DNA of 24,242 nt, from positions 1 through 24,242 of IMG/VR virus record IMGVR_UViG_3300023210_000217; one strand, written 5' to 3'. Positions 5,524-11,729 of this stretch are shown in pieces; the stretch's first letter is position 1; every line of letters starts with the position of its first letter. A program made the position numbers and the translations under genes. The notes beneath the pieces were generated by a model. It did no database searches and was not told the origin of the DNA. It saw only the letters and a program-made list of their open reading frames with translations. This DNA is from a virus.

Positions 5524-5599
5524 GCTTTCTTAGCTCAGTTGGTAGAGCTCTTCCTTTGTAAGGAAATTGTCGTCAGTTCGACTCTGACAGAAAGCTCCA
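5524..5599 (+). tRNA. tRNA-Thr (anticodon TGT)
   Basis: A complete cloverleaf. The acceptor stem GCTTTCT pairs fully with AGAAAGC. The D-stem is GCTC/GAGC. The anticodon loop TTTGTAA has T33 and anticodon TGT at 5557-5559. The T-arm is GTCAG-TTCGACT-CTGAC, and the CCA end is encoded at 5597-5599. The outermost anticodon-stem pair (C5550-A5566) is mismatched; the other four pair. Confidence 0.9.
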
Positions 5600-5659
5600 A
5601 GGCACATTTAACCTTCAAACGATAAAGTGCCGCCCCCTGCTTGGTGTAGGGGTTCTTAT

Positions 5660-5736
5660 TGACTCATAGCTCAGCAGGTTAGAGCGCCAGTCCGATAAAC
5701 TGGGTGTCCTTGGTTCAAATCCAAGTGAGTCAACCA
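5660..5736 (+). tRNA. tRNA-Ile (anticodon GAT) with C33
   Basis: A complete 77-base cloverleaf. The acceptor TGACTCA pairs with TGAGTCA over 7 bp. The D-stem is GCTC/GAGC, the anticodon stem CCAGT/ACTGG (5 bp) and the T-arm TTGG-containing with loop TTCAAAT. ACCA is encoded at 5733-5736. The anticodon loop is CCGATAA, giving GAT at 5694-5696 but a C at position 33, where nearly all tRNAs have U. Confidence 0.85.
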
Positions 5737-5793
5737 GACCTACAGTATCCGCATTTAGTTGCAGTCTGGATCCGGGCTTGGTGCTGTAGTGTC

Positions 5794-5869
5794 GCGAGAG
5801 TGGTGTAAGTGCACTGCCGGCCCTGGTTGCCAATGGAAAGTATAGGTTCAAATCCTATCTCTCGCACCA
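5794..5869 (+). tRNA. tRNA-like gene, isotype unclear, distorted D and anticodon arms
   Basis: The acceptor GCGAGAG pairs with CTCTCGC (7 bp). The T-arm ATAGG-TTCAAAT-CCTAT is perfect, and ACCA is encoded, for a normal total of 76 bases. The D-arm is short (GTG-TAAGTG-CAC) and lacks the usual GG pair. No clean 5-bp anticodon stem can be drawn: GGC/GCC closing the loop CCTGGTT would give TGG (Pro), while a TTGCCAA loop would give GCC (Gly) with an unpaired stem. It may be a decaying tRNA or one with an unusual fold. Confidence 0.5.
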
Positions 5870-5941
5870 AGGCAATCAGCCCCGGTTCAACTCCGGGCCG
5901 GGATTAATCACCCCGGTAGTGTAGTGATAGCACAGTTGCCA
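5870..5941 (+). tRNA. permuted tRNA: 3' half placed before 5' half
   Basis: Bases 5872-5904 read as positions 39-72 of a tRNA: anticodon-stem 3' strand GCAAT, 4-base variable loop, T-arm CCCGG-TTCAACT-CCGGG, and acceptor 3' strand CCGGGAT. After a 5-base linker (TAATC), bases 5910-5939 read as positions 1-31: acceptor ACCCCGG, TA, D-arm GTGT-AGTGATA-GCAC, A26, and anticodon 5' strand GTTGC. The two halves are complementary: the acceptor pairs at 6 of 7 positions, and the anticodon stem at 5 of 5 with one G-U, plus a further C5940-G5871 pair. No complete linear tRNA can be drawn. CCA is not encoded. The anticodon is not defined. It could be a true permuted gene or what remains of a tandem pair after deletion. 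Confidence 0.5.
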
Positions 5942-5967
5942 CGTTTTAATTCACAACAGGAATAACC

Positions 5968-6312
5968 ATGACCAAGATCCACCGCAAGGTCAGGCTGCCA
6001 ACCGACCTGATCAGCATCCTCCGCTATATCCGTGACTCCATAGGCAACCGCTCAGTCCCGGTTCTCGTGAACATCTGCCTCAAGCAGACTCGGGGTGTTA
6101 GTTGCCTAGATTACGCACCTACCACACGATATTCGAGCGAGGCCATTGACTTGTGGCTGTATGAGGAGTATGCTAATCTTGAAGCCGCAGAGCTCCGCGC
6201 ACGGATAGCGCATGCCCTGGTAGGCGTTGACACCACGATCGACTGGAACAGAACAGGAGTGACAGTATGCCCAGCAATGGAATGCCTTCAACAGCAACCG
6301 GCCTGCAGATGA
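5968..6312 (+). CDS. hypothetical protein (114 aa)
   Basis: AACAGGA lies 7 bases before the ATG. The N-terminus is basic (MTKIHRKVRLPTDLI), followed by an alpha-helical region with an acidic helix at residues ~70-90. It is not recognised. The last 15 residues are encoded over the start of the next gene (46-base overlap in another frame), so the C-terminus is constrained by that gene's leader. It follows the tRNA cluster without a terminator. Confidence 0.6.
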   Translation: MTKIHRKVRLPTDLISILRYIRDSIGNRSVPVLVNICLKQTRGVSCLDYAPTTRYSSEAIDLWLYEEYANLEAAELRARIAHALVGVDTTIDWNRTGVTVCPAMECLQQQPACR

Positions 6313-9038: not shown

Positions 9039-11549
9039 CTAAACAAAGCCACCAAAGCCGCCCTGGGTATCTGGAACTACCGGTGGCGGTAATGGCCTTG
9101 CCTTGTGGGCAGCTGCCGTATCCACGCCCAAACACATGTATTGCAGGGCATCAGCCAAGTGACTGAACTTGTTCTTGCTGGCAACGTCCTTGAACTTTTC
9201 ATCCTGACCACTGACTTGAACTCGCTCGAACTTATACCCACCTTTCAACCCTTTTAATATCATATGACATGACGGGTCAATCAGTATGGCCGGTTGCCCC
9301 ACAGCATCCAGTCTGGTCAACCTATCAAGTACAGCCTGCCTACGTGGCAGAAAATCATTGGTAGACGCCGCCATAGTAGGTATCTTCAGGTTAGCCAGGA
9401 CGCGGGCACATGTAAGCTCGTCAGCCTGGCTCCGTTGTTCACCCGCAGGATCCCCAACAGATGAGAACGGTATACCCGGGAATGTGTTGGCCAGCATCGG
9501 CTTGACGGCGTTTTCTGTAAACTGCTTCAATCCACCATCCTCGCACCATAGCTCACGCAGTATCCTGAGTTGGCCGGTAGGTGTTACCTGCCCGAATAGG
9601 CATGCTGGTGTCAGTCCATAATCCCAGGCAAGCATGATAGGTATCCCGCCAAACAGCCCAAGCGGTACTGGCGATTTGTGAACAAACTCATTGAAAGCAT
9701 CGCCGTACACGGGCTTTCCGTCAAAGATGGCGCCATAGTCACCCATGCAATGAACCTTGATCCAGTCGCTATCGGCACTCCCAACATTCTTCATCCAGTA
9801 GCGATAACCCTGCTTATGGTTCTGAACATTCTCCGCAATGGGGTTAGCCTCGTACCCGACAGTTCTACCCCTGGTATCCAGGACTGGCAATAGCCCGCCT
9901 GGCTGCCTGAAGAATTCCCAATTAGGTAGCTTCGACTTTTCTGCCAGCTTGTAATACCAAGAGTCATCGTCCGGAGGGTTAGTGTCTGCGATCATACCGG
10001 TCCATGATGTGTCATCAGGACAGTCAGCCATTGACGGGTAACGCCCCGTTCTGGATAAGCCGGCATCAACAAGAGTCTTTGGTATCTCGCGCACCTCGTT
10101 GAACCATATCCCGGTCAGCTCCAGGGATAATAATCGCTTTGCATCCTTCGGCTTGTCCAATGCGAGGAACATTATCTCAAGGTCCATGGTCGTTTTATCC
10201 GGTAGTACCATCCTAATTCTACCGCGAATAGGCGAGTCATAGACAATAGGGCATAATGTGTCAGGAAACCATTCCTGCCAGGTTTTGATAGTCGTAGTCT
10301 TGAGTTCCCCATAGGTCTGAGAGCACCACATTGCCTTACCGTTGCGACGAACGTATATCTTATGAGTTGGAACCTCTATACAGTACACCATGTCGTCATA
10401 CTGCTCTTTGTACCATCCATAGTCTTGCTTGCAATGGCTCTTGATTACATTAAGCCTGGGGTGATGTTTTTTTTCTGAAAGTATCGTTACAAGGTAATGG
10501 TCGTAATTGTTATTGAACCCTGTTTTTGACTTAATTCCTGCTTTTGTTTTTAATGCTACATTCATTACCATGCCTGCACGCAGGCCTATTTCCTGGAAAT
10601 CATCCGCTAATTGCTTGCTGCTTGTTGAAAGAAATCTAGTACTACCGCTACTATGCCCGTCTCCCATATGGAATCCATCTATGAATGCTTCGAGATGTTC
10701 TTGGGGGGCATTCTTTAGCCAATCCGGAGCATACTTGCTGTAAGATTTGCCAAGTGTAGAAAGCATTTTTATCAGCGGCTTAGTTTTATCAGTGACCGAT
10801 AGCCGATATGTTTTGCAATTTCCGTCAGGGCGATCAGCTACAGTGTATGGCAAGTTAGCATTGCGAAACAGTTCCTCAGAATCATATCTGGATGGATCTT
10901 GAGTAATCACACATTGATGGCGTGTGTAACCGTCGTTACATTTGTACACCCCACATGATCCTTCGGCATACCAGAACCCAAGCCACTTGAAGAAATCAAC
11001 AGAATACCCAGGATGAGTGCCGATCCAATCAGCGTCACGCTTTACCCTGTAGCTCGACTTCCCATATACTTCATGAGCCTTCTTAAACTCGTACTCACCC
11101 CATATTTGTTTTCTAGTTCTTTTCTTTGAAACCATCATGTGATGATCTGGAGTGACGAGGAAATTGACGCCTTCAGACTTAAAGCCCATCATCTCCCCAG
11201 AATAATGCTTTTTGTAGTAATAAGTCGGTTCAACGAATTCCATTTGCCCTGAGTCGTTCAACTGGGAGACGCGTTCCCCCGGCAATAAATCCTTGAATAG
11301 CTTCCATCCATTTTCGGTTAATAGTTCTGTTTCTTTGTCGTAGCAATTCCGGACTATCGCCCACCGCGAACGCCTGATTCCATCCTTGCTAGGCTTCTGC
11401 TTTGTTGCCCTGGCGTATACCTCGATGCAACAGCCCACTGACTTTCCGCTGCCTATCGGCCCCATGATCATACGGACCTCTGCATCGCTGCAATGGAATT
11501 GCTCAAGGGTGGGGAGAGCAGTGTAGTCGATAACCTTTTTTTCTGCCAT
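9039..11549 (-). CDS. terL: terminase large subunit, interrupted by an intein
   Basis: 836 residues, of which 69-411 are an intein, leaving a 493-residue terminase of normal size. The ATPase has a Walker A motif at 30-37 (GPIGSGKS), Walker B ending at N484-E485 (GIWFNE), and a coupling motif near 519-526 (MIADTNPP). The RNase H-like nuclease shows acidic residues D643 (AWDYG), D700 (VGDPAG) and D800 (HLADALQ). It packages DNA into the prohead using ATP and cuts concatemers. The start at 11549 follows CAGGAATACAT. It is transcribed opposite to the terminase small subunit and all structural genes, with its own candidate promoter at 11572-11599. Confidence 0.93.
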   Translation of the reverse strand: MAEKKVIDYTALPTLEQFHCSDAEVRMIMGPIGSGKSVGCCIEVYARATKQKPSKDGIRRSRWAIVRNCYDKETELLTENGWKLFKDLLPGERVSQLNDSGQMEFVEPTYYYKKHYSGEMMGFKSEGVNFLVTPDHHMMVSKKRTRKQIWGEYEFKKAHEVYGKSSYRVKRDADWIGTHPGYSVDFFKWLGFWYAEGSCGVYKCNDGYTRHQCVITQDPSRYDSEELFRNANLPYTVADRPDGNCKTYRLSVTDKTKPLIKMLSTLGKSYSKYAPDWLKNAPQEHLEAFIDGFHMGDGHSSGSTRFLSTSSKQLADDFQEIGLRAGMVMNVALKTKAGIKSKTGFNNNYDHYLVTILSEKKHHPRLNVIKSHCKQDYGWYKEQYDDMVYCIEVPTHKIYVRRNGKAMWCSQTYGELKTTTIKTWQEWFPDTLCPIVYDSPIRGRIRMVLPDKTTMDLEIMFLALDKPKDAKRLLSLELTGIWFNEVREIPKTLVDAGLSRTGRYPSMADCPDDTSWTGMIADTNPPDDDSWYYKLAEKSKLPNWEFFRQPGGLLPVLDTRGRTVGYEANPIAENVQNHKQGYRYWMKNVGSADSDWIKVHCMGDYGAIFDGKPVYGDAFNEFVHKSPVPLGLFGGIPIMLAWDYGLTPACLFGQVTPTGQLRILRELWCEDGGLKQFTENAVKPMLANTFPGIPFSSVGDPAGEQRSQADELTCARVLANLKIPTMAASTNDFLPRRQAVLDRLTRLDAVGQPAILIDPSCHMILKGLKGGYKFERVQVSGQDEKFKDVASKNKFSHLADALQYMCLGVDTAAAHKARPLPPPVVPDTQGGFGGFV
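10317..11345 (-). mobile_element. intein with LAGLIDADG endonuclease domain in terL
   Basis: The intein runs from C69 to Q411 (343 residues), inserted between VRN68 and T412, so splicing would rejoin the common terminase sequence VRN-TYGEL. Block A is CYDKETELLTENGW. Block B is VTPDHH (T133, H136). Two LAGLIDADG-type motifs are LGFWYAEG (190-197) and FIDGFHMGDG (289-298), each with an acidic residue in the catalytic place. Block F includes H396. The C-terminus is WCSQ with T412 as +1 nucleophile, whereas most inteins end in His-Asn. The DNA is visibly more AT-rich than the flanking exteins, suggesting separate origin. Confidence 0.9.
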
Positions 11550-11571
11550 ATGTATTCCTGATGTTGCAAAT

Positions 11572-11599
11572 ATTCTAATCAGTTTTGAAAAATATGCAA
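11572..11599 (-). promoter_or_regulatory. candidate promoter for terL
   Basis: On the minus strand, TTGCAT (11599-11594) and TAGAAT (11577-11572) are 16 bases apart. Transcription would begin about 15 bases before the terL start, giving a short leader containing the ribosome site. A dedicated promoter is needed because neighbouring genes run the other way. Confidence 0.5.
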
Positions 11600-11618
11600 G
11601 TTTTTAGGTGCTTAAAAA

Positions 11619-11644
11619 TTGTACAGTTGTGGCTAGTTGTACAA
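11619..11644. repeat. TTGTACA direct repeats in the terL-portal divergent region
   Basis: TTGTACA (11619-11625) and the palindrome TTGTACAA (11637-11644) are 18 bases apart. They lie between the candidate promoters for terL and for the structural operon and could be a shared regulator site. Confidence 0.35.
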
Positions 11645-11664
11645 ATATTTTACGGGGTGGTGCA

Positions 11665-11670
11665 TATAAT
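11665..11670 (+). promoter_or_regulatory. candidate -10 box for the structural operon
   Basis: A perfect TATAAT preceded by TGCA. A -35 box at the usual spacing is not evident; TTGTAC is 22 bases upstream. It may need an activator or a phage-modified polymerase. Confidence 0.35.
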
Positions 11671-11729
11671 CTATTGATTCCGCGAAATAATGTGCTTAAA
11701 TTGTTAGCACTGTTCTGTGTGAATGATCA

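What the first reader, a model, noticed from the sequence alone, without database searches (positions are those of the whole stretch)
5870..5941. Permuted tRNA gene: 3' half upstream of complementary 5' half
The two halves fit one cloverleaf only when reordered. The acceptor strands pair 6 of 7 and the anticodon strands 5 of 5 (one G-U) plus a sixth pair, with a normal T-arm, D-arm and 4-base variable loop, joined at the acceptor end by just TAATC. Permuted tRNA genes are established in some red and green algae and archaea, where tRNA-splicing endonuclease processes them. Bacteria lack that enzyme, so a functional version in a phage would need another route. The simpler explanation is a deleted tandem duplicate.
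Basis: partly seen in the sequence, partly recalled or inferred. Interest (0 to 1): 0.75.

Follow-up and report, generated by a model that had tools for sequence, protein, structure and literature searches.

The report
Anticodon-less permuted tRNA mimic in phage
Next to its tRNA genes a bacterial virus carries a sequence that folds like a tRNA cut open at the anticodon and sealed at the amino-acid end; it is most likely a tRNA look-alike of the kind found in Y RNAs, though a broken leftover of duplicated tRNA genes is not ruled out.

Summary
At 5870-5941 a 3' tRNA half precedes a 5' half, and they pair in permuted order: acceptor 6/7, anticodon-equivalent stem 5/5 plus a sixth pair, T arm 5/5, D arm 4/4. 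It is the only such structure in 3.9 Mb of related sequence and far above shuffled controls. A covariance model of permuted tRNAs finds such modules next to Ro60 genes in phages (48-66 bits); the window scores 53.5. A relative (TerL 49% identical) carries three permuted units and no detectable Ro60. I favour a TLM-type tRNA mimic (0.55). Membership in the Y RNA family is not shown: no Y-RNA flanks, no RF02553 match, no Ro60 gene in this 24-kb fragment. The main rival is a deletion remnant of tandem tRNA genes (0.30), favoured by the neighbouring defective tRNA at 5794-5869 and by TLM-trained models that do not separate the element from ordinary tRNA junctions.

The parts
5870..5904 (+). upstream piece of the module (3' tRNA half): closing-stem strand 5871-5876, 4-nt spacer, T arm 5881-5897, acceptor strand 5898-5904
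5905..5909 (+). TAATC: 5-nt loop capping the acceptor hairpin (or spacer between two tRNA halves); no CCA
   Evidence: short caps without CCA are usual in Ro60-adjacent modules
5910..5941 (+). downstream piece (5' tRNA half): acceptor strand 5910-5916, TA, D arm 5919-5933, A, closing-stem strand 5935-5940
   Evidence: D arm 16/17 identical to the D arms of phage modules in L259, L267 and L284
5794..5869 (+). neighbouring tRNA-like gene 'A': 7/7 acceptor, T arm, encoded CCA, but a 4-nt D loop and no anticodon stem; segment 5810-5831 is complementary to the module
5524..5599 (+). intact tRNA-Thr(TGT), first of the array
5660..5736 (+). intact tRNA-Ile(GAT)
5867..5874 (+). CCAAGGCA at the A/module junction, repeated at 5597-5604 after tRNA-Thr: candidate deletion microhomology under the remnant hypothesis

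Best explanation
The element is a tRNA mimic built like the tRNA-like module (TLM) of bacterial and phage Y RNAs. Shown: the sequence can form T arm, capped acceptor hairpin and D arm in permuted order, closed by the stem that equals the anticodon stem. Inferred: it is transcribed with the tRNA array, is freed on its 5' side when the upstream tRNA-like gene is cut after its CCA, and works as an RNA that looks like the elbow and acceptor of a tRNA but has no anticodon loop and no free 3' acceptor end. It would therefore not be decoded or charged; it would bind tRNA-handling proteins as decoy or tether. For Salmonella YrlA, published authors suggest that the tRNA-like domain could competitively inhibit an anticodon nuclease (PMC7790460), and YrlA's domain binds PNPase (PMC8394870). 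Which protein this phage element would bind is unknown.
For: Order of elements, 4-nt spacer, capped acceptor and TA + D arm match the RF02553 (YrlA) consensus structure and the modules found upstream of Ro60 genes in 8 of the 12 Ro60-encoding phages examined, 48-66 bits with R1, not called as linear tRNAs apart from two partial overlaps (L224, L235), as well as next to a TROVE gene in a bacterium. Those 16 modules show strong covariation in the permuted structure (94.6% of cells paired). Modules with the same GTGT/GCAC D stem exist in viral contigs, some beside a Ro60 gene (L239, L278, L302). A relative with 49% identical TerL has three permuted units, GGAGG/CCTCC closed, and no TROVE gene found. 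tRNA-specific features are missing while 20 of 21 pairs stand: no CCA (Thr, Ile and A have one), no U33 (40 of 42 real tRNAs have T33), and C32-G38 would be a Watson-Crick pair (0 of 42). Both cut points lie exactly in the anticodon loop.
Against: No basal stem from the flanks (p 0.15-0.28) and no Y-RNA flank motifs (ACUUC, UUCCCC). No RF02553 match at the element, although that model also rings on ordinary tRNA arrays at 33-42 bits. No Ro60 gene in the 24-kb fragment. Models trained on true modules do not separate the element from tandem-tRNA junctions (R2 38.1 bits; R3 42.6 bits). A permuted-tRNA model scores tandem copies of one tRNA 57-64 bits too. The long transcript prefers another fold. 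G19 is A. No close relative was found to test conservation.
Confidence: 0.55

Rival explanations
1. Deletion remnant. Two tandem copies of one tRNA (possibly a Trp-type) stood after gene A; one deletion removed the first copy's 5' half, perhaps through the repeat CCAAGGCA, and another removed the second copy's 3' half. What is left has no function.
For: It lies in a tRNA array, flush with the CCA of gene A. Gene A is itself defective: no anticodon stem, shortened D loop. CCAAGGCA occurs after tRNA-Thr and at the A/element junction. A carries GTTGCCA, the element's closing strand, as a 7-nt repeat, and its odd segment is complementary to the element (p<0.001 in 1000 shuffles), so the array has been rearranged. 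Tandem copies of one tRNA give the same permuted pairing. TLM-trained models score the element no better than ordinary junctions.
Against: None of the neighbouring tRNA pairs seen in the phage relatives and Ro60 phages was a tandem copy of the same tRNA. A CCA would be expected in the TAATC spacer. Both breakpoints would have to fall in the anticodon loop by chance. 20 of 21 pairs survive while the tRNA-specific signals do not.
Confidence: 0.3
2. A joint structured RNA of gene A plus the element (5784-5959), in which A's middle pairs with the element and the tRNA-like parts are alternative states.
For: The combined fold is unusually stable: z -4.0, -4.2 and -5.6 for two spans against +0.7 to -3.2 for tRNA-array controls, with helices of 11, 9 and 8 bp; shuffling 5810-5831 never reaches it.
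Against: A's perfect 7-bp acceptor, T arm and CCA are wasted in that fold. Part of the complementarity follows from shared D-stem sequence and the GTTGCCA repeat. It was noticed after the fact and there are no homologues to test covariation.
Confidence: 0.1
3. A functional circularly permuted tRNA gene, matured through a circular intermediate as in red and green algae and Thermofilum.
For: Junction in the anticodon loop and a 5-nt intervening sequence, as in some algal genes (intervening sequences 5-85 nt; PMC3218864, PMC3978253). ARAGORN calls a cloverleaf when the halves are reordered with a suitable loop.
Against: No bulge-helix-bulge motif and no splicing endonuclease in bacteria; no U33; the anticodon would have to be borrowed from A's CCA end; G19 lost; no group I intron match nearby.
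Confidence: 0.04

Closest known systems
tRNA-like module of bacterial/phage Y RNAs (YrlA, RF02553; published structure PDB 6CU1, cited in PMC8394870)
   Same: same permuted order of arms, capped acceptor hairpin, anticodon stem used as closing stem, no anticodon, no CCA
   Different: no Ro60-binding basal stem or flank motifs, no Ro60 gene in the fragment, a 6-bp closing stem flush with a tRNA-like gene
Three permuted units of IMGVR_UViG_3300009788_000012 (record G005, 10825-11149)
   Same: phage of the same TerL family; permuted units with 5-6 bp closing stems, no CCA, no Ro60 gene found
   Different: closing stem GGGAGG/CCTCCC, D stem GCTC type in two units (the middle one is degenerate), units partly separated and preceded by an AAATTTGAAT motif; U3 has only 4 acceptor pairs
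Circularly permuted tRNA genes of algae and Thermofilum (PMC3978253, PMC3218864)
   Same: 3' half before 5' half with a short intervening sequence
   Different: those have a BHB junction, a full anticodon and a splicing enzyme; here none of these
Tandem same-tRNA arrays (L213 Gly x4, L216 Asn x5)
   Same: their junctions show the same permuted pairing
   Different: outer halves and CCA are present and gaps are 26-49 nt; here outer halves and CCA are missing and the gap is 5 nt

Membership tests
Y RNA / YrlA | tRNA-like module with T arm, capped acceptor hairpin and D arm inside a closing stem | tested here: met
   against RF02553 structure and phage modules; topology only, not homology
Y RNA / YrlA | basal stem from the RNA's ends that binds Ro60/Rsr, with conserved flank motifs | tested here: not met
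   flank duplex p 0.15-0.28 and motifs absent; six of 15 control modules reach p<=0.01
Y RNA / YrlA | match to the curated family model | tested here: not met
   nothing at the element up to E 10; the model also misses Ro60-adjacent modules at its cut-off (36.9 of 69 bits)
Y RNA / YrlA | encoded near a Ro60/TROVE gene | tested here: inconclusive
   no TROVE in the 24-kb fragment; the record is incomplete
circularly permuted tRNA gene | 3' half upstream of its matching 5' half | tested here: met
circularly permuted tRNA gene | BHB motif at the junction and a splicing endonuclease | tested here: not met
   no such motif is seen at 5860-5875 / 5935-5950; bacteria lack the enzyme (general knowledge)
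circularly permuted tRNA gene | complete anticodon loop with U33 after joining | tested here: not met
   position 33 would be A5941 and the anticodon must be borrowed from A's CCA
canonical tRNA gene | linear cloverleaf | tested here: not met
   no Rfam tRNA match at 5870-5941; ARAGORN's linear call is spurious

The most novel reading that the evidence does not exclude
A functional circularly permuted tRNA gene in a bacterial virus, matured without the tRNA-splicing endonuclease by an unknown cut-and-ligate route.
Probability: 0.04. Interest if true: 0.9.

Novelty: new variant of a known kind. Interest (0 to 1): 0.4.

Why it matters
If it is a tRNA mimic, phages carry stand-alone permuted tRNA look-alikes without the Ro60 partner, which tRNA-gene finders misread or miss and which could act on tRNA-cutting host defences or RNA decay. 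It also shows that 'permuted tRNA gene' hits in bacterial viruses should first be checked against Y-RNA modules and tandem-tRNA junctions.

Tried and rejected
(1) Chance: rejected. (2) ARAGORN's linear tRNA-Leu: rejected. (3) Group I intron or permuted intron-exon arrangement: no intron match and no room before the next ORF at 5968. (4) Isotype: Trp-, Gly- or His-like features do not settle it. (5) Close relatives with the same array: none by TerL, MCP, portal, DUF7448 protein, junction 19-mer or D-arm pattern, so conservation could not be tested. (6) RF02553 score as proof of Y RNA: rejected, since it rings on tandem tRNA arrays. (7) R1, R2 and R3 bit scores as proof: rejected, since tandem junctions can score alike. 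(8) A basal stem around A plus the element (CTGTAGTG / CACAACAG): shuffle p about 0.4.

Full report
What was checked. The window is a whole IMG/VR record, a linear 24,242-base fragment of a podovirus related to HMO-2011 (portal, major capsid). Three tRNA-like genes stand in a row: Thr 5524-5599, Ile 5660-5736 and a poor one, here called A, 5794-5869. Directly after A's CCA comes the finding, 5870-5941.

The acceptor strands pair 6/7 (C5911 faces A5903), the anticodon-equivalent strands 5/5 with one G-U plus C5940-G5871, the T arm 5/5 and the D arm 4/4. The halves are joined by TAATC. A scanner for permuted cloverleaves found this site and no other in 3.9 Mb, and one weaker hit in 114 Mb of shuffled sequence. 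Unlike tRNA halves pair this well in 1 of 1190 combinations and in 0 of 28 real neighbouring pairs. The isolated segment folds this way by energy.

It is not a good tRNA. Position 33 is A. The only possible anticodon is the CCA end of the tRNA before it. G19 is A. No CCA follows the acceptor strand although Thr, Ile and A encode one. The pair C32-G38 occurs in none of 42 tRNAs examined. A permuted tRNA gene of the algal type would need a BHB motif and splicing endonuclease (PMC3978253, PMC3218864); no BHB motif is seen here, and bacteria lack the enzyme.

What has this topology. I built a covariance model, R1, from 24 tRNAs permuted in silico. It gives 53.5 bits here and at most 45 bits at ordinary tRNA junctions of the relatives. 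The scan led to a relative (TerL 49% identical, record G005) with three permuted units closed by GGAGG/CCTCC. Rfam aligned two of them, below its cut-off, to YrlA, a Y RNA. Y RNAs carry a tRNA-like module that mimics the D, T and acceptor arms and binds PNPase, and a basal stem that binds Ro60/Rsr (PMC8394870).

Controls. Next to a TROVE (Ro60) gene in a bacterium R1 finds a module at 61.9 bits. Of twelve Ro60-encoding phages examined, eight have one to three modules at 48-66 bits upstream of the Ro60 gene, not called as linear tRNAs apart from two partial overlaps with ARAGORN or annotated tRNAs in L224 and L235. Sixteen such modules covary strongly in the permuted structure. A final scan of viral contigs for T arm followed by a GTGT-type D arm found modules with the window's D-stem type, several beside a Ro60 gene; their D arms differ from the window's at one of 17 positions in three cases. 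Negative controls: tandem copies of the same tRNA also score 57-64 bits with R1, and YrlA's own model rings on tandem arrays, so a bit score alone proves nothing. Models trained on true modules (R2, R3) do not lift the window above tandem junctions.

Weighing. For the mimic: exact topology, both cut points in the anticodon loop, a 5-nt cap instead of CCA, loss of tRNA-only signals with 20 of 21 pairs intact, and permuted units known in phages, including a relative without a detectable Ro60 gene. Against it: no Y-RNA flanks, no basal stem, no Ro60 in the fragment, and a long transcript that prefers another fold. For the remnant: the tRNA-array setting, a defective neighbour A, and repeats CCAAGGCA and GTTGCCA that look like traces of rearrangement. 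Against it: no same-tRNA tandem pair among the phage neighbours seen, and two coincident breakpoints. These weights are my judgement; I set 0.55 for a TLM-type mimic, 0.30 for a remnant, 0.10 for a joint A+element structure and 0.04 for a working permuted tRNA gene.

What is shown and what is inferred. Shown: sequence, pairing, rarity, likeness of topology to Y-RNA modules, presence of such modules in phages with Ro60 and of similar permuted units in a relative without a detectable one. Inferred: transcription, release by processing at A's CCA, and a decoy or tether role. Membership in the Y RNA family is not claimed, since the basal stem was tested and not found.

Noticed in passing
window 10317-11345 (- strand), inside TerL 9039-11549: TerL carries an intein of about 343 residues between ...RWAIVRN and TYGELK... 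(weak Hint and LAGLIDADG signals); the relatives' TerL compared here lack it. TerL also points opposite to the portal gene, unlike in relatives L003 and L004.
   Followed up: partly
window 5794-5869: tRNA-like gene with perfect acceptor, T arm and CCA but no anticodon stem and a 4-nt D loop; its segment 5810-5831 is complementary to the permuted element (shuffle p<0.001).
   Followed up: partly
L199 (IMGVR_UViG_3300009788_000012, 10300-11700), minus strand: Three permuted tRNA-like units in a row with GGAGG/CCTCC closing stems, two stretches preceded by an AAATTTGAAT motif, in a phage without a detectable Ro60 gene.
   Followed up: partly
L239, L259, L267, L284, L302, L315, L278: Apparent phage Y RNAs whose module has a GTGT/GCAC D stem; some lie beside a TROVE gene.
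   Followed up: partly
L003 183-247 and 752-817 (- strand): Two type II hammerhead ribozymes above Rfam's cut-off, about 500 bases apart on the same strand.
   Followed up: no
L225 6369-6714 and L232 6791-7048: Brevundimonas phages Gurke and Marchewka carry a permuted tmRNA (RF04321) near their Ro60 gene and Y-RNA modules.
   Followed up: no
window 5634-5652: Terminator-like hairpin CCCCTGC..GTAGGGG with T-rich tail between tRNA-Thr and tRNA-Ile.
   Followed up: no
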